Assembly: GCA_950295325.1 (NCBI GenBank)
Contig: OX485806.1
Coordinates: 53,811,169 to 53,875,168 of the forward strand
Length of the DNA stretch: 64,000 nt
Source: Polytrichum commune
Taxonomy: Eukaryota > Streptophyta > Polytrichopsida > Polytrichales > Polytrichaceae
Reading direction: 5' to 3'
A program made the translations under genes and the position numbers. Shown here piece after piece: positions 15,046-42,859 of the stretch (position 1 is its first letter; each line of letters starts with the position of its first letter). Under the pieces are notes generated by a model. The model did not search any database and was not told where the DNA came from. It saw nothing but the letters and a program-made list of their open reading frames with translations.

Positions 15046-15092
15046 CAAGCCCTAAGCCCTAAGCCCTAAGCTCGTGGCCTAAACCCTAACCC
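15046..15092. repeat. Degenerate telomere-like (CCCTAAG/CCCTAAC)n
   Basis: Three consecutive CCCTAAG units, then CCTAAACCCTAACCCC with an interruption. This is close to the plant telomere repeat CCCTAAA but short and impure, so it is interstitial. Confidence 0.65.
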
Positions 15093-15174
15093 CGTGGCCG
15101 AATACGAGTCGGGGACGTCGCACCATTCTCTGCAATATTCACCGAATGCTCACAGACCGCTTTCCTTCTTGCTC

Positions 15175-15360
15175 AGTTCCACTACTAACATGCTTGCTCA
15201 ATTGTGTTTGCTTCAATCGTTAACCTGTTTGCTTAGCCCTTTTTGCATCGTTCCATTATGTTGGCTTAATTGCTAGCCTGTTTGCTTAGTCCTTTTTGCA
15301 CAGTTCCATTGTGTTTGCTTCAGATGCTAGCCTGCTTGCTCAATCCTTTCTCCTTACCCG
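15175..15360. repeat. Minisatellite, 53-54-bp unit
   Basis: Units begin at 15228, 15281 and 15335 (TTTGCTTAGCCC / TTTGCTTAGTCC / CTTGCTCAATCC), with a partial unit before. Each carries GTTCCATT and GCTAGCCTG or GTTAACCTG. Reading through gives Leu/Cys-rich peptides that are probably meaningless. Confidence 0.75.
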
Positions 15361-15411
15361 AACTTCTTTGCACAAATTGCTCTCTGAATTGCTTTCTAAT
15401 GTGTATCTTAA

Positions 15412-15743
15412 CAAACTTAGTGGAAGCGTTGAGGTCTCGCCTAGATGTGTCATGTTAGGCTAGTGGAGCCTAACGAGGGAGGCCCCAAACGAGGGGCAAC
15501 CCAAGTGAGTCCCAAAGTAGGTGGGCCTAGTGTAGGTTAGGTCCTTGGAGGGGAGATCCAAGGTCGCTAATAGACCATCTAGGAACGACACCTTTGGGAC
15601 TATGCCAAATTTGAAGATGCATTGTGGGGGTCGCGCCCTAAGGTAAACACAATGCCACACCATAGAGCATGGCAACTTGAGAATTGGTGTGCCGACTACG
15701 AGTATAGTCAATGAGGGCATCGACTCCGTTTGGTGGGGGTGAG
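15412..15743 (+). mobile_element. Family-1 internal 3' end
   Basis: Matches 37594-37923 of the complete element up to the LTR, including the polypurine tract GGTGGGGGTGAG (15732-15743). It is truncated on the left at about 15412, so only the 3' tail of this element remains. Confidence 0.85.
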
Positions 15744-24147: not shown

Positions 24148-25101
24148 TATCGCAACCCTTGTTCGTTCCCTTAACAATCTTGCCAATTTTTGTTTCTAGC
24201 AAAGGTTACGAGCGCTAACCCATCGCATTCCGCCATGCTAATGCTTAACTCCTCCTACCCGGGACCTTATAGTTCAAAGGAGGGAATCAACCCTCTTACT
24301 TTGCTTTCGGGATTCACCCCTTAATCGGTAACCCATTCCTAGATGTGGACTTCCATCCATGGAAGTCCAATCCCATGTTGATCATCGCATTGCCGGAGCA
24401 ACACTACAACAACCCGAACCATACTAGGCAACTATTGCCTCACAATGGGCCAAAGCCCATGGAAGCCGTGCCGTTCGGCCTCGGGTGGGTGAGGCCACAC
24501 CACCTCACCCATATAAGCCTCTAGGACTCTACGTGGGGCCCCTACCCCACCGTCACGAAACCTTTTGTCTCTCTACCAAGAGTTGGGGCCAAGTAGATAT
24601 TTTCCCTTAGCCGCTAGGCCTAGTAGCCCCCAATAGCTTCAGACCATCATAACTTCCTTGTATGATGTCTGATACAAACACAAAACCACTCCATCTTCAT
24701 CTACGCTTCACGTCGATGCCGATGGACTCCTCACTTGCCCCAATCCGAGCAAGTCTTGGGGAAGTTATGCCTGCTTGAGCCTTGGCAATCCCGGGAATCA
24801 CTCCCAAGCACTGTTGTACCAAGGCGCAGTCCCGGGACAGCGCCCCACTCAAATGCCCATAACTCCTAGCTCACACCTCCGATTAAGGAGATCTTGAGCG
24901 TTCTAGAATCACCACGCCATGAGCTATGCATTGTTTCTGGCCTTACCCTCATGCCTCCTAGTCTCCGTGGGTGGGAGGCGTTCCCAACGCACGGGGCCCT
25001 CACCCACACTAGGATCACTTGGGCCACTCTCACCAACGGCGCCACAAGTCCCGGGTGTCACTCCGTGGTCCCCCTTGTGCCCATGGTTTTTCGGGCACTC
25101 C
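24148..25101 (-). mobile_element. Family-1 3' LTR (reverse) of the outer nested element
   Basis: Starts TATCGCAACCC, with G changed to A in the terminal TG, as does 40079. The two match almost base for base for about 680 bp, so they are the LTR pair of one element. At 25101 a small deletion removes about 20 bp of LTR end and ~14 bp of adjacent internal sequence. Confidence 0.88.
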
Positions 25102-26952
25102 AAACGGAGTCGATGCCCTCATTGACTATACTCGTAGTCGGCACATCAATTCTCAAGTTGCCATCCTCTATGATGCCGCATTGTGTTTACCTTAGGGCGC
25201 GACCCCCACAATGCATTTTCAAACGTATAGTTCCAAAGGTGTTGTTCTTAGGTGGTCCGTTAGCAACCTTGGATCTCTCCTCCAAGCACTTAACCTACAC
25301 TAGATCCAACTACTTTGGGAGTCACTTGGGTTGCCCCTCCTTTGAGGCATCCCCGTTAGGCTCCACTAGCCTAACATGACACATCTAGGCGAGACCTCAA
25401 CGCTTCCACTAAGTTCTCTCGGTTGCAATTCCGAGATGGCTTTCCATTGTTAAGCCACGCCTCGATCGCACAGGGGTGATGCCAAGTCCCGCCCGACTTG
25501 GTTCCCACATTGCTCTTTCCAGACATGGGTTCATGACTCCCATGCACCAACTCTCGTTAGCTCGCGGGTAGCATTTTTATAAGCACGCGCCATCACATTG
25601 TCCTCGCCCGGACAAACCCACGGCTAAGAGGTTTCTTGGTTTTATCCAAGGCCCCTCTAAGCCATGGCCCCTAATTACTCGGCTTACCCAACCTAGTTTG
25701 GCATGTCTATTCCCCCTCTTCCACTAACCAAGCACAAGTACAAGACTAGGACCTCATCTCATACTTTTCTCTTTGCACCACTAAAGTTTGGATTTTATTC
25801 CCTTAAGCCAAAGAACAAGTTCATGTTGTGGAGTAATTAGCCTCGAAGCTAAGTGTGCTACTAGCGTGTCTCCCCCATGAAAGGAAATTGATGTCCTTAT
25901 CAATGCCTACGCTTCATTTTATTGGAATGTCTAGCCTTAGTTTCTTCAAAGTGTTTTAACAATTCCTTGTCGTTCACCATGTCTCTTGCCGCCATCCAAG
26001 CGGTTTCTTTCTCATGGTATCCTCACCATTTCACAAAGTAGTCCTTTGTACATTTTCTTTCCTTTTCGCTTGGGCTTTCTACACTTGAGGATGCCCTCCT
26101 ACCTCAAGTTCCAAATGATGTCCACAAGGTCGGGACGTGGCCTAATCACTTGCTTGTGATCGGGCCACAAGGTGCTATCTTTAAATGGCTTTAGGAATGA
26201 GACATGAAATGTCGGATGCACTTTGATCTCGGGCGGTAATTCCAACTTATAGGGATCCTTGAACACTTGTTCCACAATGGAAAATGGAGCTCCAATTTTG
26301 GACATGAACTTTGGAGTGAGGCCTTCCGGCTAAGTGAAGTTGTTTACATTCAACAACACCTTTTGGCCCACCTCATACTCCACTTCGCGTCTTCCGGCAT
26401 TGACTTGCACTTCGTAGCACCTTCAAGCTTTCTCTACCAACAACTTGGTCATCTCCAAGACTTGTTTTTTCTCTTTGGCCAAGTCCTCACCATCTTGGTT
26501 TAACTCTAGATTAAGAGTTAGATTAACCCTTGTGCCCCCTCGAGAGCTAGGTTAAAAGGTTGGAGTGCATGCACTCCATAAGCCACCATGAAAGACCACC
26601 CCTTGGTAGCCAAGTGCGTGGCTACATTGCAATTACACTCCGCTCGACCCACATAGTCCGCCCAATCTCCTTGGTCCGCCCCCACCAAGTTCTTCAAGTA
26701 TTGCTTCAAGACTCCATTCACACGCTCCGCTTTCCCATCCATTTGGGAATGCAAGGTTGTGCTAAACTTTAGTTTCATTCCGACCTCCTTAGAGGAATGC
26801 ATTGAAAATGCACTTGTGAACTTTGGATCTTGATCCGCCACAATCACTCTTGGCAACCCGTGGTGCCTCAACCATCCTTTGAGAAAAGGCTATGCGGTCT
26901 CCAACGCGGTGGCGGTTCCCACAATCAGCACCATGTGTGCCAACTTGGCAAA
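25102..26952 (-). pseudogene. Family-1 pol 3' part: integrase and chromodomain (outer element)
   Basis: Reverse copy of 36180-37910 of the complete element. It contains the integrase core (LPRVIVADQDPKFTSAFSMH, with the E in GKAERVNGVLKQYL), a GPY-like C-terminal region (LELPPEIKVHPTFHVSFLKP), and a decayed chromodomain at about 25925-26110 (GILKCRKPKRKGKK, then HEKETAWMAARDMVN in another frame). Several frames and stops. The integrase core is split by the solo LTR at 26958; it resumes at 27780. Confidence 0.85.
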
Positions 26953-27784
26953 CCGCTCGTCGCGCACCTCTCCATGAGGAGTGCCCGAAACACCAGGGGC
27001 ACAAGGGGGATCCTAGAGTGACACCCGGGACTTGTGGCGCCGTTGGTGAGAGGGCCCAAGTGATCCTAGTGTGGCTGAGGGCCCCGTGCGTTGGGAACAG
27101 CGCCCTGGTACAGCAGTGCCTGGGAATGGTTCCCAGGATTGCCAAGGTTCAAATAGGCATAACTTCGTTAATACTTGCCTGAATGGGGCCAGTGAGGAGT
27201 CCATCGGCATCTACGTGAAGCATAGATGAAGATGGGTAGGTCGTTTATTAATATTAGACATCATACAAGGAAGTTATGATGGTCTGAAGCTGCTCAAGGC
27301 TTCTAGGCCCAACTGCTAAGTTAAAATCTCTTCTTGGCCCCAACTCTTGGTAGAGAGACAAGAGGTTTCTTGATGGTGGGTAAAGGGCCCCGCATAGAGT
27401 CCTAGAGGCTTATATGGGTGAGGTGGTGTGGCCTCACCCACCCGAGGCCGAACGGCACGTCCTCCATGGGCATTGGCCCATTGTGAGGCCATAGTTGCCT
27501 AGTATGGTTCGGGTTGTTGTAGTGTTGCTCCGGCAACGCGATGATCAACATAGGATTGGACTTCCATGGATGGAAATCCACATCAAAGAAATGGGTTATC
27601 AATTAAGGGGTGAGTCCCAAAAGCATAGTAGGAGGGTTGGTTCCCTCCTATGAACTATAAGGTCTGGGGTAGGAGGAGCTAACCATTAGCATGGCGGTAT
27701 GCGAAGGGTTAGCGCTCGTAACCTTTGCTAGAATTGAAAATTGGCAAGATTGTTAAGGGGGCTAACAAGGGTTGCGACACCGCT
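26953..27784 (+). mobile_element. Solo LTR, family 1, target duplication CCGCT
   Basis: LTR 26958-27779 (822 bp), flanked by CCGCT at 26953-26957 and 27780-27784. Its first base is mutated (CGTCGCGC), and about 150 bp are deleted between GTTGGGAAC and AGCGCCCTGG. It lies inside the integrase of the reverse family-1 element. Confidence 0.92.
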
Positions 27785-30202
27785 CTACCATCAACAAGAT
27801 GGCATCATACCCATGTGACTCCAGCAAACTTGTGATCAAGTCCATGCACATACTTTGTCATGAGCCCGGCAGGTTAGGCAACGGTTGCAAGAAACCGCCT
27901 TGCTATTGGTAAGAGGCTCGGTTCACTTGGCACTTCATTCACGCCTTCATAAAGTGGGTTATTTGTTCCTTTATGCACCGCCAATGGTACCTCCTTGACA
28001 CCATTCTATGGCGGTTTTGTCTTTCTCCTCTATGGCCGGCAATAGGACTATCATTTTCCTTCCGAACCGATAGCCTCAACGTGCCTTGTGGCACATATAC
28101 CCAACTTTGCTTGCACTTGAACAATCCGTCCAACAACTTAAACTCTTTGAGCACCTTGCTCTTGCGAAGCTAACCTAGAAGTTTTTGTGCTTTGGGGTTG
28201 TTAATTTACCCCTCCTGTATCTTGCATCACAAGTTTCCTTCACCGGCACACATTAGCCACAAGGTTTGGATGGTTCTCATTGCTTGGAACTCTTCCGGTC
28301 TACTTAGCGCATCCGGCACCACATTTCCACGGTCTGGTTTATGGATCAAATCCACCTTCATAAGCGCCAAACTATCATGCCACCGCAATGACTTGGCGCT
28401 CAGTTGCGCTTGTATGTCAAAATTCTCTTAGGATACATTGTCTATGTAGACCTTTGCTTTATGCGACCCCAAATAGTGTCGCCACATCTTCAAGCAATGC
28501 ACTACGGCAAAGAAGTTCTTTGTCATGAGTTGGTTGTCTTCTTTGACAACAATCAAGCTTCATGCTCCCATATGCAATGGCCATCCATCTTACATCAACA
28601 ATCCGCCATTGTCAAAGTCATTCACCCCCGTATGCACCTCAAAATGATTGTCAAGGTCCGCGAACTTCAGTACGGGTGGCGAAGAGAATTTGGTCTTAAG
28701 CTCCCCAAAGACTCGTCACAAACATCATCCCACTCTTGGGATAGCCATTTCTTCCACAAGTCGCACAAGGTGGGACAACCATCGAGCTTCATGCTCTCAT
28801 ATATAATGGCCATCCATCTTGCATCAACATCCGCCAATGGCAAAGACACTCGCCCCTGTATGCACCTCAAAAGGTTTGTCAAACTCCGCGAACTTCAGCA
28901 CGGGCGGCGAAAAGAACTTGGTCTTAAGCTTCCCAAAGACTTGGTGGCAAGGCTCATCCCACTCTTGGGATAACCATTTCTTGTACAAACCGGACAAGGT
29001 TGGACAACCATGAAGCTTAATGCTTTCATATGCAATGGTCATCCATCTCGGATCAACATCCGCCAATGATAAAGTCCTTCGCCTTCATGTGCACCTAAAA
29101 ATGCTTATGAAAACCCATAAATTTAGCCACATCTTGTGAAGAGAACTTGCTCTTAAGCTCCCCAAAGGCTTGGTGACAAGGCTCATCCCACTCTTGGGAT
29201 AGCCATTTTCTTGAATAAGTTGAATAAGGTCCTAGCAACCTTCAAAAACTCTCGAATGAAGTGATGGTAGTAGTTGGCTAGGCCATCAAATGACCTATTA
29301 AGCCCTTTTTGAATCAAGGGCAACTTGTCCTTTTGGATTGCCTTGACATTCTTCATGTTCGTCCACCAACTTCCTTTGTTACCACCTACCTCAAGAACTC
29401 AATCTCTCGTTGAGCAAAGTCATTTTTCACTCCTTGGCGGTAACTTTTTGGGCAACACATTGGTGAATACATCCTTGTATCTCACCAACGTTCCACCAAT
29501 GCAGTTGGGGGAGGCCCATCTTTCCTAGCCTCCCGATACGTTCATTGGAGTTGTTCCAATTGAACCACGACCATTATGTTTTCTATTTTTCATTTGGTCC
29601 ATTAAGACCAAATTCAACTTGGGTCCTCCTACCATAGGAGTCCTTGTCAAATTTGAACTTCAATTCTTTGTCATTATGACACATCATAATGCACCGCAAG
29701 CAAACCGGCTTGCACCTGACATCTATGATGTGAGTTTCAAAGAAGACGACCTTAACAATGACATGCATTTCATCTATTTCACATGGTGTGAAATTTTGAC
29801 AAAAATCCAATGTCCCACATTGAAAGGTTACATGCATCACCGCCTTCTTTGTCTCATGCGGTTCGCCCTTTCCAAACCGCACCTTGGTGGACTGCATGCT
29901 CTATCAATCGGCAAGCCCCAACCCCTTTGTAAGTTTTGGGCTCAAGAAGAAATGGTAGCCTTTTGTCAACCCATGAGACATTTCTCCCATTCTTCTGAGC
30001 CTCAAGGTACAAAATATTTGGCTTCGGCTTAAGGCTACTAGCCTTGGCCACAAAGCCATCGTCCAACATTCGGTCCGCGGCCCAAGTATTATTTGGCTTG
30101 ATACCTATCTCCCCTCAACGTCCATTGTTGTATGGCCCTGCCAAATTTCTTCTCGGGGTCATCGGCTTTAATGCTCGTGGCAATTTTGATGATCCCCGCC
30201 AC
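27785..30202 (-). pseudogene. Family-1 pol 5' part (outer element): integrase start, RNase H, 229-bp array, protease
   Basis: Right to left in sense: protease region (29583-30070; LYLEAQKNGR...VSWVDK and HVTFQCGTLDFCQNF), RT remnant lacking the palm (29260-29560), 229-bp units (about 28560-29260), RNase H (28390-28560), and integrase zinc/linker and first part of the core. It is the same order, with the same RT deletion, as the complete element at 31617-38896. Confidence 0.82.
28560..29260 (-). repeat. 229-bp tandem array, outer element (about 3 units)
   Basis: The marker GATAGCCATTTCTT / GATAACCATTTCTT recurs about 229 bp apart near 28740, 28970 and 29200. This is the same unit as at 34421-35337, so the array is an old family trait. 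Confidence 0.85.
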
Positions 30203-31611
30203 AACTTTGTCAGCCACAAACCCCCACCCCTGTGCGTCGTAGTCCGGGTGAGAGCTAGTGGCTCACATGTCCTTGCTTGATGTCAGTCAACCCTTGGACT
30301 TGAGCTTCAGTTACTCCAATAACAGGAATATTGAACACACAATTTTTTATTCAAAGAGCATGAAGTGACAAGTATTTAGAAATACTTGACTCATCCTCAG
30401 TAGGCATCACACCCACTCACATGCTTCTACCTACAACAGTGAAATGATCAACAACCCTAAACTATTTCATAATGGCCTTCAGGCAACACCTCATTACTCC
30501 ATTGGTAGCTCATGCTCACTAGGCATTCCATCCACTCACCTAATCGGCAATTAGCTCAATCATTAATTACTGCCACACACTAAAATCACTAAATTCTACA
30601 CTAATAAAGACGTGAAGGCTAGTATGTGTCACTTGAATCACTTCCTGGTTACCTTCGACCCTTCCCCGGTTCGGCAATAAATCCTCCTCTTCTCATTCGG
30701 TGATAGCCTTGGTCTACTACACCCAACACCTCCAACTGCCAGTAATACCAAACCTGGCAAGTCTCGGCAAGCTGCACAATAAGGCAGGGCCCTTCAGCTG
30801 TCATTCACAGTAGGTGTATGCACTTCGAACCTAGTCATAGCTGCCCAACATTGTCTCTGGACTAAGCCTCATCAAGAGTTCAGCCTGTAATGCTCGGCCC
30901 ACATCTCCTCCCAGTAGGGACGCGGCTAGTTGAATGAACCCGAACGCCACCATCTCGGCCTGCATTGACTGCCCTGACCTTCCCTTTGGGCCAACATTAC
31001 TTCAGACTCAGCCGACCTTCACGAGCTTCTCAGTTCATCCTTATGTCCACACGACGCAAGGGCAACCGCCCACCTCAGTGACCTTGTAACAATGATTTCT
31101 CCTCAGTAGCTTGAATGCACACCTTCGAGTTTGTGGGTGCCAGGCACAACAACTACCCTGCTCCACCTGTCGTCTCTGTCCTAGAGATTTCACGGCATTC
31201 ACGTGCTACCTTCTCAAGTCTTTCTGCAATCAGCCCTTGCTCTGAACCCTCTGCAACCGCTTCCTTAACTGTTCTGAATCTACCCACATAATTCCCAGGG
31301 TCGCTCCTCCTTCCGGCAATTCCGATTTCCTCATGAACGTTTCGGCTCGACTTTGCTTCACTCGGAGATGCCACAAGGCAAGCTTGGGATGTGTAGTTCA
31401 GGTGCATTTCCATGTCTGAACTGGCCTTACTCACACTCAGTTCAAGAGTTCAGTAATTGCAATGACTTACTGAAGTTTTTTTGACGGTTGGCAGTAATGA
31501 TGCCATGCTGAGATTCTTCGCCCTTCCGTAGTCTCTGAAGCCTTGAGCTCCATTCCAGCAGCTCGGCCATGGCCATTCAGAATCCCTCCTCGTAGGAGAT
31601 TCTCTCTCCCT
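30203..31611 (-). mobile_element. Family X LTR, left half (split by the complete family-1 element)
   Basis: Starts TGTCAGCCACAAACCCCC at 30208 after target site AACTT (30203-30207). A second copy starts at 62590 and matches over the first few hundred bases (CGTCGTAGTCCGGGTGAGAG). On the minus strand GAATAAAAAATTGTGTGTTC near the end looks like a poly-A signal, so sense is probably minus. With 38902-39552 it totals about 2,060 bp. Frames inside (such as 31434-31153 -) are not recognisable. Confidence 0.7.
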
Positions 31612-31616
31612 CAGAC

Positions 31617-32589
31617 TGTCGCGCACCTCTCCATAAGGAGTGCCCGAAACACCATGGGCACAAGGGGGACCCCGGAGTGACACCCGGGACTTGTGGCGCC
31701 GTTGGTGAGAGGGCCCAAGTGATCCTAGTGTGGGTGAGGGCCCCGGGCGTTGGGAACGCCTCCCACCCACAAAGACTAGGAGGCATGAGGGTGAGGCCAT
31801 GAGCTATGCGTAGCTCATGGCGTGGTGATTCTAGAATGCTCAAGATCACCTCAATCGGAGGTGTGAGCTAGGAGTTATGGCCATTTGAGTGGGGTGCTGT
31901 CCCGGGACAGCGCCCTGGTACAGCAGTGCCTGGGAGTGATTCCCGGGACTGCCAAGGTTCAAACAGGCATAACTTCCTCAAGCCTTGCCCGAATGGGGCA
32001 AGCAAGGAGTCCATCGGCATCTACGTGAAGCGTAGATGAGGATGGAGTGGTTGGTTGTTATGATCAGACATCATACAAGGAAGTTATGATGGTCTGAAGC
32101 TGCTGGGGGGGTTCTAGGCCCAGCAGCTAAGGGAAAATGTCCACTTGGCCCCAACTCTTGGTAGAGAGACAAGAGGTTGGTTGGCGGTGGGGTAGGGGCT
32201 CCGTGTAGAGTCCTAGAGGCTTATATGGGTGAGGCGGTGTGGCCTCACCCACCCGAGGCCGAACGGCACGGCCTCCATGGGCATTGGCCCATTGTGAGGT
32301 CATAGTTGCCTAGTATGGTTCGGGTTGTTGTAGTGTTGCTCCGGCAACGCGATGATCAACATAGGATTGGACTTCCATGGATGGAAGTCCACATTGGGGA
32401 AATGGGTTACCGATTAAGGGGTGAGTCCCGAAAGCAAAGTAGGAGGGTTGGTTCCCTCCTATGAACTATTGGTCCGGGGTAAGAGGAGCTATCCATTAGC
32501 ATGGCGGAATGCGAAGGGTTAGCGCTCGTAACCTTTGCTAGAAACGAAAATTGGCAAGATTATTAAGGGACCTAGCAAGGGTTGCGACA
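31617..32589 (+). mobile_element. 5' LTR of the complete family-1 element (hairpin chain)
   Basis: TGTCGCGCACC...GGTTGCGACA. CTTATATGGG at about 32220-32229 is a plausible TATA region. At least twelve perfect stems of 6-10 bp with short loops follow one another: 31746-31760, 31797-31820, 31847-31863, 31896-31911, 31984-32002, 32018-32038, 32098-32128, 32227-32250, 32255-32275, 32277-32292, 32369-32390 and 32440-32461. More stems have one bulge or wobble (32064-32097, 32151-32180). Confidence 0.93.
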
Positions 32590-32591
32590 CT

Positions 32592-32603
32592 TGGTATCAG
32601 AGC
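32592..32603 (+). other. Primer-binding site (tRNA-iMet)
   Basis: TGGTATCAGAGC, two bases after the 5' LTR. An intact plant initiator-Met site, compatible with recent reverse transcription. Confidence 0.93.
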
Positions 32604-32640
32604 AGGGTTCCAATATTTGAGCTAGCACTTTGAGGGAGAC

Positions 32641-33267
32641 ATGGCTATCAAACCTGAGGGTTATTATGGTGAGCCGGGGTTTCCAAAAGGTTGTGAGGCT
32701 CAAATTGGAACAAGGATCATGTGCAAGTGGAATTTGACCATACCATTGGTTCAAATGACAATGGTGGGCATGAGGGTGGATTTGGTAAGGAAAATGGAGG
32801 AGTGCTTTGAAAAGGGCTCCCGCAAACCTCAAAAAACATTTGGGGCCTAGAATACCGAAAGCACCCAAAACCTTGGAGGGCATTAATGTTGGATTGAAAT
32901 TCCAATTCGAAATGCTTGGAAGGTATTGATGTTGGAATGAATTTGGTGCTAATGAGGCACCCGGGGCCTCTTAAGGCCTATGTGCGCTATTCAAACGCAC
33001 AAATGAAGGATACACCTAAAACGGACGAGCTTTCTAAGAAATGTATCCTTTTAGGTGGGGTTTTAAAAGCGGGTGGTGGATGCCTTGTTTAAGTCCCCAA
33101 GGCTTCTTGAGGACACGGTGGGGACCATCAAGTTTGCAAGAGCATTGAAGCCAATGGTCCCAAAGAGAAGTTCGACGGCGCATCACCACAAGTGGCTTTA
33201 GCCAAAGTAGGTCCCAAAGAAATGAGTGCAAATTGTTTGGTCCATTTTACTTAGGCAAAACATGTTG
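32641..33267 (+). pseudogene. Family-1 internal 5' coding remnant (gag position)
   Basis: The first ATG (MAIKPEGYYGEPGFPKGCEA) runs about 69 codons to a stop. Other frames give KDTPKTDELSKKCILLGGVL. It occupies the gag position, but no capsid motif or zinc knuckle is visible, so gag may be lost or replaced. Confidence 0.5.
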
Positions 33268-33580
33268 GTGCCGCGGACGGAATGTTGAAAGGTGGCTTTA
33301 TGCTTCCAAAGCAAATCATACTTGTGCCACGGACGGAATGTTGGGAGGTGGGTTTGTCCTACCAAGGCAATTCATGTTCGTGCCGCGGACGGAGTGTGGG
33401 AAGGTGGCTTTGTACTACCAAGGCAAAACATGTTTGTTTTGCGGACAAATTATTAGAAATTGGTTTTGTGGCACCAAACCAATTTGTCCCGCGGACGAAA
33501 TGTTTAAAGTTGGCTTTGCGGACCAAGCCAAGCCAAGTTGCCGAGGACCAAATGTTGGACGATGGCTTTGTGGCCAAGGC
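33268..33580 (+). repeat. 56-bp minisatellite in family-1 internal region
   Basis: Units start at 33268, 33324, 33380 and 33436 with exactly 56-bp spacing (GTGCCGCGGACGGAATG core, later copies diverged), then fade towards 33580. The unit length is not divisible by three, so the reading frame changes with each unit. Confidence 0.88.
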
Positions 33581-34060
33581 TAGTAGCTTTAAGCCGAGGC
33601 CAAGTATTTTGTACCTTGAGGCTCAAATAAATGGGAGGTTTGTCTCATGGGTTGACAAAGAGTTAAGGCATTCTTTTATGACCCCAAAGCTCACAAGGGA
33701 GTTGGGGTTTGCCGATTGGTAGAGTGGTGAAGCCCACCAAGGTGCGGTTTGGAAAGGGCGAACCGCATGAGACAAAGGAGGCCGCGATGCATGTAACCTT
33801 TCAATGTGGGACATTGGAATTTTGTCAAAATTTCACACCATGTGAAATAGATGAAATGCATGTCATTGTGAAGGCCGCCTTCTTTGAAACTCACATGATA
33901 GATGTGAGGTGCAAGCCGGTGTGCTTGCGGTGCATTATGATGTGTCATAATGGCAAAGAATTGAAGTTCAAATTAACAATGACTCCTATGGTAGGAGGAC
34001 CTAAGTTGAATTTGGTCTTAATGGACCGAATAAAAATAAAAATAAAACATAATAGTCATG
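33581..34060 (+). pseudogene. Family-1 aspartic protease region, inactive
   Basis: Reads ILYLEAQINGRFVSWVDKEL, RHSFMTPKLTRELGF, then HVTFQCGTLEFCQNFTPCEI and FFETHMIDVRCKPVCLR. The layout is that of gypsy retropepsin, but the expected D-T/S-G active-site triad reads D-K-E. A stop after GFADW and further frame changes follow. Confidence 0.7.
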
Positions 34061-34420
34061 GTTCAATTGGAGCAACTCCAAGGAACGTATGGGGAGGCTA
34101 GGAAAGATGGGCCTCCCCCAAACAACATTGGTGTGATGTTGGTGAAATACAAGGATGTATTCACCAATGTGTTGCCCAAAAAAAAAATTACCGCCAAGAA
34201 GTGAAAAATCACTTTGCTCAACAAGAGATTGAGCTCTTGAGGTATGTGGTGATAAATGAAGTTGGTGGACGAACATGAAGAATGTCAAGGCAATCCAAAA
34301 AGAGAATTGGCCCTTGATTCAAAAGGGCTTAGGTCATTTGTTGGCCTAGCCAATTAGTACCACAACTTCATTCGAGAGTTTTCTAAGGTTGCTAGGACCT
34401 TATTCAACTTATTGAGGAAA
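34061..34420 (+). pseudogene. RT remnant with the catalytic core deleted
   Basis: VMLVKYKDVFTNVLPK (before RT) is followed within ~60 bp by sequence equivalent to EFLRYVVTKE and KVKAIQK..LIQKGL (connection), then RSFVGLANYYHNFIREFSKV (frame changes). Fingers and palm with YxDD, about 150-200 residues, are absent. The reverse copy at 29260-29560 has the same gap, so the deletion is inherited. Confidence 0.8.
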
Positions 34421-35337
34421 ATGGCTATCCCAAGAGTGGGATGAGCCTTGTCACCAAGCCTTTGGGGGGCTCAAAAACAAGTTCTCTTCGCCGCCCGTGC
34501 TTAAGTTCGCGGACTTTGACAAACCTTTTGAGGTGCATACGGGGGCGAGTGACTTTAGCATTGGCGGATGTTGAGGCAAAATGGATGGCCATTGCATATA
34601 AGAGCATGAATCTCGATGGTTGTCCGACCTTGTCCAACTTATGCAAGAAATGGCTATCCCAAAAGTGGGACGAGCTTTGCCACCAAGTCTTTAAGGAGCT
34701 TAAGACCAAGTTTTCTTCGCCGCCCGTGCTCAAGTTTGCGAAATTTGACAAACCTTTTGAGGTGCATACGGGGGCGAGTAACTTTACCATTGGCGGATGT
34801 TGATCCAAGATGGATGCCCATTGCATATGGGAGCATTAAGCTTAAAGGTTGTCAAACCTTGTGCGACTTGTGAAAGAAATGGCTATCCCAAGAGTGGGAT
34901 GAGCCTTGCCACCAAGTCTTTGAGAAGCTTAAGAGCAAGTTCTCTTCGCCGCCCGTGCTCAAGTTCGCGGAGTTTGACAAACCTTTTGAGGTGCATACGG
35001 GGGCGAGTGACTTTACCATTGGCGGATGTTGAGGCAAGATGGATGGCCATGGCATATGAGAGCATGAAGCTCGATGGTTGTCCCACCTTGTGCGACTTGT
35101 GGAAGAAATGGCTATCCCAAGAGTGGGATGATGTTTGTCACGAGTCTTTGGGGAGCTTAACACCAAGTTCTCTTCGCCGCCTGTGCTCAAGTTCGCGGAG
35201 TTTGACAAACCTTTCGAGGTGCATACGGGGGTGAGTGCCTTTGCCAATGGTGGATTATGTGTAAGATGGATGGCCATTGCATATGGGAGCATAAAGCTCG
35301 ATGGTTGTCAAAGAAGACAACCAACTCATGACAAAGA
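34421..35337 (+). repeat. 229-bp tandem array of RT-connection/RNase H sequence (4 units)
   Basis: ATGGCTATCCCAA starts at 34421, 34650, 34879 and 35108, exactly 229 bp apart. Each unit encodes, in its own frame, KWLSQEWDE..CHQVF..LK, then FSSPPVLKFAEFDKPFEVHT and a WMAIAYESMKLDGC-like end. This is the end of RT and start of RNase H. 229 is not a multiple of three. Confidence 0.93.
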
Positions 35338-35640
35338 ACTTCTTTGCCGTAGTGCATTGCTTGAAGATGTGGCGACATTATATGGGGTCGCACAAAGCAA
35401 AGGTCTACATGGACAATGTGTCCTAAAAGTATTTTGACATACAAGCGTAAGTGAACGCCAAGTCATTGCGGTGGCATGATAGTTTGGCGCTTATAAAGGT
35501 GGATTTGATCCACAAACCGGACCGTGGAAATGTGGTGCCGGATGCGCGAAGTAGACCGGAAGAGTTCCAAGCAATGAGAACCATCCAAACCTTGTGGCTA
35601 ATGTGTGCCGGCAAAGGAAACTTGTGATGCAAGATACGGG
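35310..35640 (+). pseudogene. Family-1 RNase H remnant
   Basis: Frames read KNFFAVVHCLKMWRHYMGSH, KVYMDNVS, then WHDSLALIKVDLIHKPDRGN and VVPDARS, matching the second half of gypsy RNase H (ELLAVV..LK.WRHYL, TDN, KPG..N..ADALSR). A stop interrupts it. Confidence 0.75.
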
Positions 35641-36870
35641 AGGGGTAAATTAACTACCCCAAAGCACAAAAGCTTTTAGGTGAGCTTCGCAAGAGCAAGG
35701 TGCTCAAAGATGTTAAGGTGGTGAACGGATTGTTCAAGTGCAAGCAAAGTTGGGTGTATGTGCCACAAGGCAAGTTGAGGCTATCGGTTTGGAAGGAAGA
35801 ATATGATAGTCCTATTGCCTGCCATATCAAAAAGCCGCCATAGAATGGTGTCATGAGGGTACCATTGGTGGTGCATAAAGGAAGATATAGCCGACTTTGT
35901 GAAGGCTTGAATCAAAGTGCCAAGTGAACCGAGCCTCTTACCAAAAGCAAGGCGGCTTCTTGCAACCGTTGCGTATCCCGTTGGCGCCATGGCATGGTAT
36001 GTGCATGGACTTGATCACAAGTTTGCCGGAGTCACATGGGTATGATGCCATCTTGTTGATGGTAGAGCGGTTTGCCAAGTGGGCACACATGGTGCCGATT
36101 GTGGGAACCGCCACCGCGTTGGAGACCGCATAGCCTTTTCTCAAAGGATGGTTGAGGCACCACGGGTTGCCAAGAGTGATTGTGTGGGATCAAGATCCAA
36201 AGTTCACAAGTGCATTTTCAATGCATTTCTCTAAGGAGGTCGGAATGAAACTAAGGTTTAGCACAACCTTGCATTCCCAAATGAATGGGAAATCGGAGCG
36301 TGTGAATGGAATCTTGAAGCAATACTTGAGGAACTTGGTGGGGGCGGACCAAGGAGATTGGGCGGACTATGTGGGTCGAGCGGAGTGTAATTGCAATGTA
36401 GCCACGCACTTGGCTACCAAGGGGTGGTCTTTGGTGGTGGCTTATGGAGTGGATGCGCTCCAACCTATTAACCTAGCTCTCGAGGGGGCACATTCAACAC
36501 TAGAGTTCAACCAAGATGGTGAGGACTTGGCCAAGAAGCGTGAACAAGTCTTGGAGATGACCAAGTTGTTGGTGGAGAAAGCCCGAAGGTGCTACGGAGT
36601 GCAAGTCAATGCCGGAAGACGCGAAGTGGAGAATGAGGTGGGCCAAAAGGCGTTGTTGAATGTGAACAACTTCACTTAGCCGGAAGGCCTCACTCCAAAG
36701 TTCATGTCCAAAATTGGAGCTTCGTTTCCCATTGTGGAACAAGTGGTCAAGGACATATATAAGTTGGAATTACCGCCGGAGATCAAAGTGCATCCGACAT
36801 TTCATGTCTGATTACGAAAGTCATTTTAGGACGACACCTTGTGGCCCGATCACAAGCAAGTGATTAGGCC
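35640..36870 (+). pseudogene. Family-1 integrase, one stop in the core
   Basis: A zinc-binding region remnant (35900-35960, QGGFLQPL where CxxC is expected), then the catalytic core. The first Asp is in MCMDLITSLPESHGYDAILL, the second in WDQDPKFTSAF, and the Glu in KSERVNGILKQYLRNLVGAD, so all three DDE residues remain. A TAG near 36131 separates the first Asp from the rest. The C-terminal region has LELPPEIKVHPTFHV. It is the best preserved domain of the element. Confidence 0.85.
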
Positions 36871-36904
36871 ACCTCCCGACGTTGTGGACATCATTTGGAA
36901 CATG

Positions 36905-37110
36905 AGGTAAGAGGGCATCCTCAAGTGTAGGAAGCCCAAGTGAAAAGGAAAGAAAAAGTACAAAGGAATACTTGGTGAAATGGTGAGGATACCATGAGAA
37001 AGAAACCGCTTGGGTGGCGGCAAGAGACATGGTCAACACCAATGAATTGGTGAAGCACTTTGAAGAAACTAAGGCTAGACATTCCAATAAAAAGAAGCGT
37101 AGGCATTGAT
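36905..37110 (+). pseudogene. Chromodomain remnant
   Basis: GILKCRKPK in one frame, then YLVKW-stop-GYHEKETAW and ARDMVNTNELVKHFEETKA. This is the chromodomain layout (YLVKW.GY...E.TWE...L...ELL..F) found at the C-terminus of chromovirus integrases, so family 1 descends from a chromovirus. 37110-37911 is noncoding 3' internal sequence. Confidence 0.75.
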
Positions 37111-37911
37111 GAGGACATCAATCTCCTTTAGTGGGGGAGAGACTCTAGTAGCAAACATAGCTTCGAGGTTAATTCCTCCACAACATGCACTTGTTCTTTG
37201 GCTTGAGGGAATAAAGTCCAAACTTTAGTGGTGCAAAGAGAAAAGTATGAGATGAGGTCCTAGTCTTGTACTTGTGTTTGGTTAATGGAAGAGGGGGAAT
37301 AGACATGCCAAACTAGGTTGGGTAAGCCGAGTAATTGGGGGCCATGGCTTGGAGGGGCCTTGGATAAAACCAAGAAACTTCTTAGTTGTGGGCTTGTCCG
37401 GGCGGGGACAAGGTGATGGCGCGTGCTCATAAAAGTGCTACCCGCGAGCTAACGAGAGTTGGCGCATGGGAGTCATGAACCCATGTCTCGAAAGAGCAAA
37501 GTGGGAACCGAGTCGGGCGGGACTTGGCATCACCCCCGTGCGATCGAGGCGTGGCTTAACAATGGAAAGCCATCTCGGAGTTGCAACCGAGACAACTTAG
37601 TGGAAGCGTTGAGGTCTCGCCTAGATGTGTCACGTTAGGCTAGTGGAGCCTAACGGGGGAGGCCCCAAAGGAGGGGCAACCCAAGTGAGTCCCAAAGTAG
37701 GTGGGTCTAGTATAGGTTAGGTCCTTGGATGAGAGATCCAAGGTCGCTAACGGACCACCTAGGAACGACACCTTTGGGACCATGCCAAATTTGAAGATGC
37801 ATTGTGGGGGTCGCGCCCTAAGGTAAACACAATGCCGCACCATAGAGGATGGCAACTTGAGAATTGGTGTGCCGACTACGAGTATAGTCGATGAGGGCAT
37901 CGACTCCGTTT

Positions 37912-37923
37912 GGTGGGGGTGAG
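37912..37923 (+). other. Polypurine tract
   Basis: GGTGGGGGTGAG, mostly purine, directly before the 3' LTR. The expected primer for plus-strand DNA synthesis; also present at 15732-15743. Confidence 0.75.
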
Positions 37924-38896
37924 TGTCGCGCACCTCTCCATAAGGAGTGCCCGAAACACCATGGGCACAAGGGGGACCCCGGAGTGACACCCGGGACTTG
38001 TGGCGCCGTTGGTGAGAGGGCCCAAGTGATCCTAGTGTGGGTGAGGGCCCCGGGCGTTGGGAACGCCTCCCACCCACAAAGACTAGGAGGCATGAGGGTG
38101 AGGCCATGAGCTATGCGTAGCTCATGGCGTGGTGATTCTAGAATGCTCAAGATCACCTCAATCGGAGGTGTGAGCTAGGAGTTATGGCCATTTGAGTGGG
38201 GTGCTGTCCCGGGACAGCGCCCTGGTACAGCAGTGCCTGGGAGTGATTCCCGGGACTGCCAAGGTTCAAACAGGCATAACTTCCTCAAGCCTTGCCCGAA
38301 TGGGGCAAGCAAGGAGTCCATCGGCATCTACGTGAAGCGTAGATGAGGATGGAGTGGTTGGTTGTTATGATCAGACATCATACAAGGAAGTTATGATGGT
38401 CTGAAGCTGCTGGGGGGGTTCTAGGCCCAGCAGCTAAGGGAAAATGTCCACTTGGCCCCAACTCTTGGTAGAGAGACAAGAGGTTGGTTGGCGGTGGGGT
38501 AGGGGCTCCGTGTAGAGTCCTAGAGGCTTATATGGGTGAGGCGGTGTGGCCTCACCCACCCGAGGCCGAACGGCACGGCCTCCATGGGCATTGGCCCATT
38601 GTGAGGTCATAGTTGCCTAGTATGGTTCGGGTTGTTGTAGTGTTGCTCCGGCAACGCGATGATCAACATAGGATTGGACTTCCATGGATGGAAGTCCACA
38701 TTGGGGAAATGGGTTACCGATTAAGGGGTGAGTCCCGAAAGCAAAGTAGGAGGGTTGGTTCCCTCCTATGAACTATTGGTCCGGGGTAAGAGGAGCTATC
38801 CATTAGCATGGCGGAATGCGAAGGGTTAGCGCTCGTAACCTTTGCTAGAAACGAAAATTGGCAAGATTATTAAGGGACCTAGCAAGGGTTGCGACA
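37924..38896 (+). mobile_element. 3' LTR of the complete family-1 element
   Basis: 973 bp and identical by eye to the 5' LTR at 31617-32589. Followed by the CAGAC target duplication. Confidence 0.95.
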
Positions 38897-38901
38897 CAGA
38901 C

Positions 38902-39557
38902 TCTTGCTGGACCAACTTCTCCTCCCATCTTCCCTGCTCGATGATATACCTTGTCACCCACTACTGCTCGGCGCAATCCACAAGAATTCTGGCAGCGCTT
39001 CGTCGCCCAGCTGCATTCCTTCGCCTCTACCACCATCATCCTCCATCCCCAATAAAAACAGACCGGGGGATTCACTCCCCTCAGTTCGATGATTCCAAGC
39101 ACTCCCCTTCGACCAAACAGGGTTCTGCACCCGTCCTCCTATCCACACTTCGCCGGGGTGCCTCCCTCTTGCGAGACTCTCTTCGAACCGAAACAAGGGA
39201 CCCCCCCCCTTTCCCAGATCCGGGAATTCAGTGCCTTACCCAACCGTGGTAACGACCTCACTCCTTCAATGAACCCATTCAAGGCCTTAAACAAACGCCC
39301 ACGCACCTAGAAACAACTACTTGTTTTACACTCAAGCCCCACCTAAGCCTTAACAACCATCTACGAATCATAATTTTAACCACACAAGCCTCGATTCCTA
39401 GTAACACCGATTCAATTCTTTAACCTCACTCTAATCTAAACATAAAAGCTTCACTCTTTATATCTTTTTGAATGACTGAATAAATACCAAAGCGTAAGTT
39501 CTAATGGTTTTTTGGGATTGATAACACATGTGGGCACCAATTTGGGCTCACAAACCT
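38902..39557 (-). mobile_element. Family X LTR, right half
   Basis: Continuation of 30208-31611 after the nested element. It ends TTTGGGCTCACA at 39552 and is followed by AACCT (39553-39557), one base different from AACTT on the left. On both sides reverse family-1 internal sequence resumes, which fixes the ends. The outermost bases are imperfect inverted repeats (TGTCAGCCAC / TGTGAGCCCA). Confidence 0.7.
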
Positions 39558-40064
39558 CAATAAACTCTGGAAATTTGAACATGGTATTCACCACCCGCCT
39601 TTGAAACCCAACCTAAAATGATGAATTTCTTACAAAGCTTGTCCATTTTAGGTGTATCCTTCATTTAGGCATTTGAATAGCACACATAGGCCTTAAGAGG
39701 CCCCGGGTGCCTCATTCGCACCAAGTTCATTCCAACATCATCACATTCTAAGCACTTTACAATGGAATTTCAATCCAACATTCCTACCTTCCAAGCTTTC
39801 GGGTGCATTCGGTATTTTAGCCCCCGAATATTTTTCGAGGTTTCCGGGAGCCCTTTCAAAAGACTCCTCCATTTTCCTTACCGAATCCACCCTCATGCCC
39901 ACCATTGTCATTAGCACCAATGGTATGGTCAAACTCCACTTGCACATGATCCTTGTTCCAATTTGAGCTTCACAACCTTTTGGAAACCCCGGGCTCACCA
40001 TCGTAACCCGCAATTTTTTACAGCCATGTCTCCCTCAAAGTGCTAGCTCAAATACTGGAAACCT
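39558..40064 (-). mobile_element. Family-1 internal 5' region of the outer element
   Basis: Reverse counterpart of 32604-33080, including MRVDSVRKMEESFERAPGN, followed by the primer-site context. It completes the order LTR-primer site-5' region-(family X)-pol of the outer element. Confidence 0.8.
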
Positions 40065-40076
40065 ACTCTGATACCA
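40065..40076 (-). other. Primer-binding site (reverse)
   Basis: Minus strand TGGTATCAGAGT, two bases from the LTR start at 40079. It marks 40079-42859 as the 5' LTR of the outer element. Confidence 0.88.
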
Positions 40077-40078
40077 CG

Positions 40079-42859
40079 TATCGCAACCCTTGTTCGTTCC
40101 CTTAACAATCTTGCCAATTTTTGTTTCTAGCAAAGGTTACGAGCGCTAACCCATCGCATTCCGCCATGCTAATGCTTAACTCCTCCTACCCGGGACCTTA
40201 TAGTTCAAAGGAGGGAATCAACCCTCTTACTTTGCTTTCGGGATTCACCCCTTAATCGGTAACCCATTCCTAGATGTGGACTTCCATCCATGGAAGTCCA
40301 ATCCCATGTTGATCATCGCATTGCCGGAGCAACACTACAACAACCCGAACCATACTAGGCAACTATTGCCTCACAATGGGCCAAAGCCCATGGAAGCCGT
40401 GCCGTTCGGCCTCGGGTGGGTGAGGCCACACCACCTCACCCATATAAGCCTCTAGGACTCTACGTGGGGCCCCTACCCCACCGTCACGAAACCTTTTGTC
40501 TCTCTACCAAGAGTTGGGGCCAAGTAGATATTTTCCCTTAGCCGCTAGGCCTAGTAGCCCCCAATAGCTTCAGACCATCATAACTTCCTTGTATGATGTC
40601 TGATACAAACACGAAACCACTCCATCTTCATCTACGCTTCACGTCGATGATGATGGACTCCTCATTTGCCCCAATCCGAGCAAGTCTTGGGGAAGTTATG
40701 CCTGTTTGAACCTTGGCAATCCCGGGAATCATTCCCAGGCACTGCTGTACCAGGGTGCAGTCTGTCGCGCACCTCTCCATGAGGAGTGCCCGCAACACCA
40801 TGGGCACAAGGGGGACCCCGGAGTGACACCCGGGACTTGTGGCGCCATTGGTGAGAGGGCCCAAGTATTCTTAGTGTGGGTGAGGGCCCCGGGCGTTGAG
40901 AACGCCTCTCACCCACGGGGACTAAGAGTCATGAGGGTAAGGCCATAAGTTATGAGTAGCTTATGGCGGTGGAATTCTAGAATGCTAAGGAACACCTCAA
41001 TCGGAGGTGCTAGCTAGGAGATATGGCCATTTGAGTGGGGCGCTGTCCCGGGACAGCACCCTGGGACAGTGACCTGGGAGTGGTGCCCGGGACTGCCAAG
41101 GTTTGAAGAGCCATAACTTCCTCAATACTTGCCCAAATGAGGCAAGTGATGGGTCCATCGGTATCTATGCAAAGCGTAGGTGACGATAGAGTGGTCTCTT
41201 GAGATCATCCAACATCATATGTAGAAGTTATGGTGGTCTGAAGCTGCTGGGGGGGTTCTAGCCCCAGCGGCTAAGGGAAAATGTCCACTTGGCCCCAACC
41301 CTTGTAGAGAGACAAAAGGATACTTGATGGTGGGGTAGGGGCCCCGCCCAGAGTCCTAGAGGCTTATATGGGTGAGGCGACTTAGCCGACCGACCCCCAG
41401 AGCACACTTGGCAATGTGCTCCGGGTAGTTGTAGTGTTGTTTTGGCAACACGATGATCAACTCAAGAGTGGACTTCCATGGATAGAAGTCCACCTTAGCC
41501 ATGGGCTACCTACTAAGGGGAGAGTCCCGAATGCATGTGTAGGAGGGTTTGGTGACCAAGCCATGAGCTTGAAGGTCCGCGGTTTTGGGAGCTAACCATG
41601 CATGTGCGTGGGATGTGCAGGTTAGCGCTCGTGGCACTTGCTAGGTGGGAAAGGCGGTCAAGCTAAGTGAAGGAAAACTAGCAAGGGTTGTGACACCCAG
41701 GACTTGTGGTGCCATTGGTGAGAGGGCCCAAGTACTCTTAGGGTGGGTGAGGGCCCCGGGCATTGAGAACGCCTCTCACACACGGGGACTAAGAGTCATG
41801 AGGGTAAGGCCATAAGTGTTGAGTAGCTTATGGCGGTGGAATTCTAGAATGCTAAGGAACACCTCAATCGGAGGTGCAAGCTAGGAGATATGGCCATTTG
41901 AGTGGGGCGCTGTTCCGGGACAGCACCCTGGGACAGCAGTGACCTGGGAGTGGTGCCCGGGACTGCCAAGGTTTGAAGAGCCATAACTTCCTCAATACTT
42001 GCCCAAATGAGGCAAGTGAGGGGTCCATCGGTATCTATGCAAAGCGTAGGTGACGATAGAGTGGTCTCTTGAGATCATCCAACATCATATGTAGAAGTTA
42101 TGGTGGTCTGAAGCTGCTGGGGGGGTTCTAGCCCCAGCGGCTAAGGGAAAATGTCCACTTGGCCCCAACCCTTGTAGAGAGACAAAAGGATACTTGATGG
42201 TGGGGTAGGGGCCCCGCCCAGAGTCCTAGAGGCTTATATGGGTGAGGCGACTTAGCCGACCGACCCCCAGAGCACACTTGGCAATGTGCTCCGGGTAGTT
42301 GTAGTGTTGTTTTGGCAACACGATGATCAACTCAAGAGTGGACTTCCATGGATAGAAGTCCACCTTAGCCATGGGCTACCTACTAAGGGGAGAGTCCCGA
42401 ATGCATGTGTAGGAGGGTTTGGTGACCAAGCCATGAGCTTGAAGGCCCGCGGTTTTGGGAGCTAACCATGCATGTGCGTGGAATGTGCAGGTTAGCGCTC
42501 GTGCCACTTGCTAGGTTGGAAAGGCGGTCAAGCTAAGTGAAGGAAAACTAGCAAGGGTTGCGACACAGTCCCAGGACAGCGCCCCATTCAAATGGCCATA
42601 ACTCCTAGCTCACACCTCCGATTAAGGTGATCTTAAGCGTTCTAGAATCACCAAGCCATGAGCTACGCATTGCTCTTGGCCTTACCCTCATGCCTCCTAG
42701 TCTGCGTGGGTGGGAGGCGTTCCCAACGCATGGGGCCCTCACCCACACTAGGATCACTTGGGCCCTCTCACCAACGACATTACAAGTCCCGGGTGTCACT
42801 CCGGGGTCCCCGTTGTGCCCATGGTGTTTCGGGCACTCCTCATGGAGAGGTGCGCGACA
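40079..42859 (-). mobile_element. Family-1 5' LTR (reverse) of the outer element, split by an LTR dimer
   Basis: Pieces 40079-40757 and 42571-42859 form one LTR interrupted at CAGTC. It matches 24148-25101. It ends GTGCGCGACA at 42859 within an older forward LTR. Flanks (CCACG left of 24148, AAGAG right of 42859) do not match, so the original target site has been rearranged on one side. Confidence 0.85.
40758..42570 (+). mobile_element. Tandem LTR dimer, divergent family-1 subfamily, target duplication CAGTC
   Basis: A first LTR at 40763-41695 (ending GGTTGTGACA) runs straight into a second lacking its first ~62 bp (41691-42565). The join is at TGACACCC, which occurs at the LTR end and about 60 bp inside it. 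CAGTC flanks the whole at 40758-40762 and 42566-42570. The halves differ at only a few bases. No internal sequence remains. Confidence 0.9.

What the first reader, a model, noticed from the sequence alone, without database searches (positions are those of the whole stretch)
31617..32589. Family-1 LTR is a near-continuous chain of hairpins
In 973 bp I find at least twelve perfect stems of 6-10 bp with loops of at most 11 bp, laid end to end, plus about five with one bulge or wobble. Examples: CCATGAGCTA/TAGCTCATGG (31797-31820), CATCTACG/CGTAGATG (32018-32038), AGCTGCTGGG/CCCAGCAGCT (32098-32128), GGGTGAGGC/GCCTCACCC (32227-32250), GGACTTCCAT/ATGGAAGTCC (32369-32390). Random sequence would give about 0.01 stems of 10 bp with such loops; here there are three. 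I know of no LTR described as built this way. The RNA would be a string of stem-loops, which might serve packaging, dimerisation, protection, or feeding of small-RNA pathways (inference).
Basis: seen in the sequence. Interest (0 to 1): 0.9.

Follow-up and report, generated by a model that had tools for sequence, protein, structure and literature searches.

The report
Hairpin-packed LTR of a young retrotransposon
The ends of a recently inserted, probably helper-dependent jumping gene are packed with short DNA/RNA hairpins far beyond chance; some older relatives share many of them, which suggests the folding is useful to the element, although what it does has not been shown.

Summary
Observation confirmed. 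The 973-bp LTR holds 17 perfect stems of >=6 bp with loops of 3-11 nt; dinucleotide shuffles average 1.9 and 0 of 1000 reach 17. Fold z-score -11.7 (+) and -14.0 (-). 'Near-continuous' is too strong: perfect hairpins cover 333 of 973 nt. The LTR belongs to a complete 7280-bp element (31617-38896) with identical LTRs, CAGAC target-site duplication, tRNA-iMet-type PBS and Ty3-type but broken RNase H and integrase: young and probably non-autonomous. Stems are in excess in the internal region too. The hairpins predate this copy: two of four diverged subfamilies keep more stems than neutral mutation predicts, and the young copy spares stems (3/216 vs 35/755 changes, p 0.017) while seven older family-1 copies do not. 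Compensatory change is only modestly in excess, and G-U gains equal A-C gains, so sense RNA is not proven to be the selected molecule. Palindrome-clustered LTRs are known from maize Sireviruses (Copia), so this is a new variant of a known kind: other superfamily, unrelated stems, extending along the element. The genome-wide copy test could not be run: the genome search did not complete.

The parts
31612..31616 (.). target-site duplication CAGAC, left
   Evidence: CAGAC at 31612-31616 and 38897-38901
31617..32589 (+). 5' LTR, 973 bp, TGTCGC...GCGACA, 17 perfect stems >=6 bp
31796..31821 (+). hairpin, 11-bp stem, loop TGCG; one G-C to A-T double change in c40763/c41690
31892..31915 (+). hairpin around CCGG; in the family-1 majority LTR a 24-nt perfect palindrome; in this copy 6 bp perfect, 12 bp with G-U (31890-31917)
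32018..32038 (+). hairpin, 8-bp stem, loop TGAAG
32098..32128 (+). hairpin, 10-bp stem, 11-nt loop
32222..32228 (+). TATATGG, likely TATA box (role inferred) in a stretch conserved in most aligned copies; the U3/R border would lie near 32250 (inferred)
32226..32251 (+). hairpin, 10-bp stem, overlapping the end of the TATA-like box
32255..32275 (+). hairpin, 7-bp stem; double changes G-C to A-T (c49354, c9671m) and G-C to T-A (c42856)
32368..32391 (+). hairpin, 10-bp stem, loop TGGA
32440..32461 (+). hairpin, 8-bp stem
32526..32587 (+). long U5 stem, 16 pairs (2 G-U), 30-nt loop, ending at the LTR end just before the PBS; 14-16 pairs in the 12 of 14 copies without gaps there (this one included)
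32592..32603 (+). primer binding site TGGTATCAGAGC (tRNA-iMet type; match recalled)
33401..34200 (+). hairpin-rich internal stretch: 15 stems >=6 bp, 1.99 expected
34396..35309 (+). 229-bp tandem repeat, 4 copies, in the RNase H region (PF17919)
36134..36679 (+). integrase fragment (no Pfam hit of its own); of 63 relatives some carry PF00665, PF17921 or chromodomain PF00385
36701..37923 (+). hairpin-rich 3' internal stretch: 12 stems >=6 bp, 2.04 expected
37924..38896 (+). 3' LTR, 973/973 identical to the 5' LTR
38897..38901 (.). target-site duplication CAGAC, right
40763..42565 (+). diverged-subfamily LTR pair (TSD CAGTC) inserted beside the CCGG centre of the largest palindrome of an older family-1 LTR

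Best explanation
This is a recently inserted, probably helper-dependent Ty3/chromovirus-type LTR retrotransposon whose nucleic acid, the LTRs above all, is folded into many short, mutually unrelated hairpins kept by selection in the lineages that move and lost by neutral decay once a copy is fixed. Most likely the selected thing is compact self-folding of the element's own transcript and cDNA: the U5 stem next to the PBS positions the primer site, and the other stem-loops keep R-U5-leader and U3 folded as short local helices that aid packaging by a helper's Gag and avoid long duplexes. SHOWN: hairpin excess, its extension into the internal region, identical LTRs with TSD, broken pol, homologous hairpins in other copies, stem sparing in the young copy and in some diverged copies. 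INFERRED: that selection is the cause, that RNA rather than double-stranded DNA is selected, helper dependence, priming role, packaging and avoidance of long duplex.
For: 17 stems vs 1.9; z -11.7 and -14.0. In 200-nt blocks the energy excess over shuffles on the sense strand is 24.5% in this LTR, 18.1-20.4% in three other LTRs or LTR pairs and 14.8% in the internal region, against 2.7-6.0% in three other stretches of the window. Young copy: 3/216 stem vs 35/755 other changes, p 0.017; the 7 other family-1 copies tested p 0.20-0.89. c40763 keeps 10 stems, neutral simulation 3.4 (0/400); c41690 7 vs 2.8 (7/400); c42856 5 vs 2.1 (22/400). Loops vary more than stems in c40763 (23/91 vs 23/216). 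Double changes to Watson-Crick pairs 9 vs 4.9 (22/500); both-side changes at 9 pairs vs 5.7 (34/500), covariation score 15/500. The 15 arms share no motif, which fits structure better than one repeated binding site. U5 stem keeps 14-16 of 16 pairs in 12 of 14 copies, 2 having gaps there.
Against: G-U gains do not exceed A-C gains (63 vs 56; 45 vs 47) and the antisense strand deviates more from its shuffles, so nothing marks the sense RNA as the selected molecule. c49354 and c9671m do not keep significantly more stems than neutral (254/400, 147/400); stem sparing is not significant in c42856 (p 0.149) and c49354 (p 0.523). Against whole-LTR neutral simulation, compensatory pairs are not in excess in c40763 (1 vs 1.68), c41690 (1 vs 2.00), c49354 (1 vs 1.57) or c9671m (1 vs 1.20), and only weakly in c42856 (4 vs 1.93, 57/400); within stems only c42856 stands out (5 vs 1.66, 5/500). 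Another repeat family of the window shows 8.8-9.2% energy excess, close to the older element's internal 9.7%, so part of the internal signal may be general to repeats here. The copies are few and mostly decayed, the dozen tests are uncorrected, and the sparing in diverged copies could partly come from neutral decay of a still more hairpin-rich ancestor.
Confidence: 0.4

Rival explanations
1. Double-stranded palindromes: the stems are dyad-symmetric protein-binding sites of the LTR promoter, as proposed for Sirevirus LTRs; folding is a by-product.
For: Perfect Watson-Crick pairing is kept better than chance within stems (1042 vs 1031.3 of 1195 cells, 9/500) while G-U is not favoured; strand symmetry; [quoted passage not shown]
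Against: Stems are equally dense in U3 (11 vs 1.31) and in R-U5 (4 vs 0.48), and lie in the leader and 3' internal region, away from a promoter (U3/R border inferred); the 15 arms share no motif, longest common word 4; no Sirevirus-type palindrome in the window.
Confidence: 0.25
2. Mutational origin: template switching during reverse transcription or replication keeps copying one arm onto the other, so inverted repeats are homogenised without benefit to the element.
For: Template switching homogenises short inverted repeats (PMC8604942, passages); it would explain Watson-Crick-only upkeep, strand symmetry and the spread along the element, and the excess in stretches of another repeat family (37 stems vs 10.6 at 10060-15700, 36 vs 16.0 at 2400-9600).
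Against: The same paper reports spacer inversion as a second mark; 0 of 133 loop cells (13 loops; self-complementary, 3-nt and length-changed loops left out) are inverted or closer to the inverted loop. Stem density varies inside one element (8.4x in U3, 2.5x in the RNase H tandem). Spacer inversion needs intermolecular switching, so arm copying alone is not excluded.
Confidence: 0.2
3. Silencing substrate: the folded LTR transcripts are seen by the host as miRNA-like precursors and turned into small RNAs; the hairpins persist because another function needs them.
For: 58 of 87 sense 110-nt windows of the LTR fold below -40 kcal/mol, against 30 of 523 in the internal region and 0 of 290 in another stretch; in maize such regions match more small RNAs (PMC10760457, passages).
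Against: Perfect stems are at most 11 bp, shorter than a Dicer-like product (inference); no small-RNA data; it gives a consequence rather than a reason for upkeep.
Confidence: 0.1
4. Chance or composition.
For: The LTR is G-rich (327 G of 973).
Against: 0 of 1000 dinucleotide shuffles reach the count; homologous hairpins in several subfamilies.
Confidence: 0.01

Closest known systems
Sirevirus (Ty1/Copia) LTRs of maize with clustered palindromes (Bousios 2016, not held; known here from passages of PMC10760457)
   Same: LTR retrotransposon whose LTR has many palindromes and strong predicted local structure
   Different: Copia, not Ty3; the most abundant Copia palindrome there, CACCGGACNNNGTCCGGTG (42.9% of RLC structured regions), is absent here even with 3 mismatches; here the 15 stems are unrelated and the excess continues into the internal region
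Ty3/Gypsy (RLG) elements of maize (PMC10760457, passages)
   Same: same superfamily as the pol remnants here
   Different: reported as generally lacking an obvious peak of miRNA-like structure; here the LTR is a clear peak
Large retrotransposon derivatives (LARDs) and other non-autonomous LTR elements (recalled)
   Same: moved recently without an intact pol; structured non-coding sequence
   Different: this one keeps recognisable pol remnants, and the structure is strongest in the LTR
Genome-scale ordered RNA structure of some RNA viruses (recalled)
   Same: many short stem-loops along the molecule, seen as energy excess over shuffles
   Different: strand-symmetric here and in a retrotransposon; no function tested
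U5-leader stem next to the PBS in retroviruses and Ty elements (recalled)
   Same: U5 stem abutting the PBS
   Different: not shown to act in priming here

Membership tests
LTR retrotransposon | two near-identical LTRs, TG...CA ends, 5-bp TSD, PBS | tested here: met
   973/973 identity, CAGAC twice, TGTCGC...GCGACA and TGGTATCAGAGC (tRNA match recalled)
Ty3/Gypsy chromovirus | RT-RNaseH before integrase, with a chromodomain | tested here: inconclusive
   PF17919 RNase H at 34.4-35.4 kb before an integrase fragment at 36.1 kb (order as Ty3 mark recalled); no RT and no chromodomain found in 7 of the 8 + strand ORFs >=80 aa listed; 9 of 63 integrase relatives carry PF00385
Autonomous element | intact gag-pol | tested here: not met
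   the longest + strand stop-to-stop ORF overlapping the internal region is 181 aa
Sirevirus | Copia pol | tested here: not met
   RNase H lies before the integrase, the Ty3 order (order recalled)
Sirevirus | CACCGGACNNNGTCCGGTG palindrome | tested here: not met
   0 matches in the window with up to 3 mismatches
Palindrome-rich structured LTR (general kind) | hairpin excess over shuffled sequence, strongest in the LTR | tested here: met
Conserved structured RNA | covariation beyond controls | tested here: inconclusive
   9 both-side pairs vs 5.7 (34/500); 3-5 in six slid controls; 14 copies only
Conserved structured RNA | known Rfam family | tested here: not met
   0 matches at gathering score in the window
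Small-RNA precursor | small RNAs map to stems | not testable with these tools
   no small-RNA data

The most novel reading that the evidence does not exclude
A non-autonomous Ty3-type retrotransposon that keeps little coding capacity but, along its whole length and most of all in its LTRs, maintains an ordered chain of unrelated short stem-loops by selection at the active-lineage stage: a retrotransposon counterpart of genome-scale ordered RNA structure, by which it parasitises a helper's Gag and stays under the length that triggers dsRNA silencing.
Probability: 0.25. Interest if true: 0.75.

Novelty: new variant of a known kind. Interest (0 to 1): 0.5.

Why it matters
Hairpin-rich LTRs were described for Copia Sireviruses, where they coincide with small RNAs, while Ty3 elements of maize were reported to lack an obvious peak (PMC10760457, passages). 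A Ty3-type family with unrelated, homologously placed hairpins allows a test of whether structure itself, rather than one repeated binding motif, is kept in LTRs. Young and decayed copies of one family side by side separate selection on moving elements from decay after insertion.

Tried and rejected
Chance: rejected by shuffles. Known RNA family: none at gathering score. One repeated palindromic motif: not supported. Loop inversion by template switching: none in 133 loop cells. Sense-strand wobble signature: looked for and not found. Relatives in viral contigs: two LTR patterns gave 0; the integrase profile matched 3 stretches, none a relative. Two-copy comparison of the internal region is mixed: with stems defined in the young copy, stem divergence is above the rest in 2 of 5 segments and below it in 3; with stems defined in the older copy it is below in 5 of 5, partly an effect of that definition, so I do not rest on it. 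Literature: 8 answered searches about LTR palindromes, LTR structure, ordered RNA structure and plant LTR folding and one on template switching. No listed title or abstract start described a Ty3 LTR built this way, but searches listed only 15 of 174 and 15 of 47 papers, and most subscription papers are not held. Papers seen as passages: PMC10760457, PMC5738225 (not used), PMC6911290, PMC8604942; no paper was read whole.

Full report
OBSERVATION. The LTR at 31617-32589 contains 17 perfect stems of at least 6 bp with loops of 3-11 nt; 1000 dinucleotide shuffles average 1.90 and none reaches 17. For stems of at least 10 bp it is 4 against 0.007. Fifteen of the 17 remain after dropping two that overlap a better stem. 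Hairpins including loops cover 333 of 973 nt, so 'near-continuous' is too strong for perfect stems. The whole LTR folds at z -11.7 (+) and -14.0 (-), 20 shuffles each.

WHAT IT IS. The LTR has an identical partner at 37924-38896 (973/973). CAGAC flanks the pair at 31612-31616 and 38897-38901. TGGTATCAGAGC, a tRNA-iMet-type primer site (recalled), starts two bases after the 5' LTR. So 31617-38896 is a complete, recent insertion of 7280 bp. Its internal region has RNase H of family PF17919 and an integrase fragment without a Pfam hit of its own whose 63 listed relatives include 6 with integrase PF00665 and 9 with chromodomain PF00385. The longest + strand stop-to-stop ORF overlapping the internal region is 181 aa, and part of the RNase H region is a 4-copy 229-bp tandem. 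No RT or gag domain was found in 7 of the 8 + strand ORFs >=80 aa. A young copy with broken pol was probably moved by a helper (inference). The nearest integrase relative, 96% identical over 80% of the query, stands for 25 member sequences and shares departures from two more intact relatives, which suggests the degenerate pol itself has spread (inference).

HOW FAR IT EXTENDS. Stems of >=6 bp against expectation: U3 11 vs 1.31, R-U5 4 vs 0.48, 32590-33400 5 vs 1.89, 33401-34200 15 vs 1.99, 34201-34418 4 vs 0.60, RNase H tandem 4 vs 1.58, 35261-36700 11 vs 2.69, 36701-37923 12 vs 2.04 (U3/R border assumed near 32245 from the TATA-like box at 32222). Four other stretches of the window lie at 1.28-1.50 times expectation; 2400-9600 and 10060-15700, which hold mostly another repeat family and some family-1 internal sequence, lie at 2.25 and 3.48 times. 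Energy excess over shuffles in 200-nt blocks: this LTR 24.5% (+) and 37.8% (-), three other LTRs or LTR pairs 18.1-20.4%, internal region 14.8% and 20.3%, an older element's internal region 9.7%, the other repeat family 8.8 and 9.2%, three other stretches 2.7-6.0%. The LTR is thus the peak of an element-wide property, part of which may be general to repeats here.

CONSERVATION. Fourteen LTR copies or pieces from the window were aligned. With stems defined on a majority LTR that leaves the tested copy out (the near-duplicates c41690 and c40081m were not tested), the young copy c31617 has 3/216 changes in stems and 35/755 elsewhere (one-sided p 0.017). The seven other family-1 copies show no difference (p 0.20 to 0.89). 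Of the diverged copies, c40763 (24/218 vs 142/707, p 0.001) and c9671m (10/82 vs 66/296, p 0.027) spare stems; c42856 (p 0.149) and c49354 (p 0.523) do not significantly. The 12 tests are uncorrected. Of this copy's hairpins that each diverged copy covers, a perfect stem of >=5 bp sits at the same centre in 8 of 15 (c40763), 7 of 13 (c42856), 6 of 14 (c49354) and 2 of 6 (c9671m). Neutral simulations from c31617 with each copy's own substitutions: c40763 10 stems vs 3.4 (0/400), c41690 7 vs 2.8 (7/400), c42856 5 vs 2.1 (22/400), c49354 4 vs 4.3 (254/400), c9671m 2 vs 1.3 (147/400); the other eight copies range from 18/400 to 380/400. c40763 and c41690 belong to one insertion and are not independent. 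In c40763 loops differ at 23/91 and stems at 23/216 positions; in c42856 the two rates are alike (12/70 and 30/179).

COMPENSATION. Double changes giving Watson-Crick pairs number 9 against 4.9 with stem substitutions shuffled within stems (22/500; 12 copies, two near-duplicates dropped); c42856 alone gives 5 vs 1.66 (5/500), no other copy is unusual. Against neutral simulation over the whole LTR there is no excess in the other diverged copies and a weak one in c42856 (4 vs 1.93, 57/400). The pair counter on 117 pairs and 14 rows gives 9 pairs changed on both sides vs 5.7 (34/500), 11 cells vs 6.5 (20/500), further pair types 42 vs 40.2 (119/500), covariation score 0.058 vs 0.052 (15/500); six slid controls give 3-5 pairs. 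This is suggestive, not strong. G-U and A-C changes are balanced (63 vs 56; 45 vs 47), so no strand is singled out.

U5 STEM. 32526-32541 pairs with 32572-32587 (16 pairs, 2 G-U), ending two bases before the LTR's end, next to the primer site. The 12 copies without gaps there keep 14-16 pairs; 2 of 14 have gaps. It resembles U5-leader stems of retroelements (recalled).

MECHANISM. The best reading is folding kept by selection in moving lineages and lost after insertion. RNA-level action, packaging by a helper and avoidance of long duplex are inferred. The rivals are double-stranded palindromes as promoter sites and arm homogenisation by template switching. Against the first: spread beyond the promoter and no shared motif among the 15 arms (longest common word 4; shuffled maxima average 5.3). 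Against the second: 0 of 133 loop cells inverted, a mark reported for that process (PMC8604942, passages); copying of arms alone is not excluded.

KNOWN WORK. Passages of PMC10760457 state that Sirevirus LTRs have palindrome clusters with strong structure and excess small RNAs, that the most abundant Copia motif is CACCGGACNNNGTCCGGTG, and that Ty3 elements generally lack an obvious structural peak. That motif is absent from the window. The finding is therefore a new variant of a known kind.

NESTING. The diverged element at 40763-42565 (TSD CAGTC) sits beside the CCGG centre of the largest palindrome of an older family-1 LTR. One case proves nothing; PMC6911290 reports only a slight preference of plant LTR elements for palindromes (passages).

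Noticed in passing
3223-13885: TCCGGA occurs 72 times in the window against 12.2 expected, 68 of them between 3.2 and 13.9 kb, mostly in a second, inverted-duplicated repeat family that also has a moderate stem excess, its long reading frames included.
   Followed up: partly
11888-13555 (-) and 4086-5336 (+): Long stop-to-stop frames (555 and 416 aa) of the second repeat family with no Pfam match above cut-off; the first has 104 listed relatives, up to 88% identical, without domain or informative name.
   Followed up: partly
40763-42565: Two diverged-subfamily LTRs joined head to tail with no internal region; the second lacks its first 60 nt and the joint shares GTGACA, suggesting a microhomology deletion.
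   Followed up: partly
24150-42859 (-): An older family-1 element on the minus strand appears interrupted by the young element at 31617, by another family-1 LTR at 26959-27779 and by the 40763 element: family-1 and relatives inserting in family-1.
   Followed up: partly
33253-33469: A 56-bp tandem repeat (about 3-4 copies) in the internal region of the young element.
   Followed up: no
34396-35309: A 229-bp unit repeated 4 times within the RNase H region; the older copy at 28.5-29.2 kb also matches several units, so it may be fixed in the non-autonomous lineage.
   Followed up: no
3516-3544: A 13-bp perfect stem with a 3-nt loop, the longest listed in the window.
   Followed up: no
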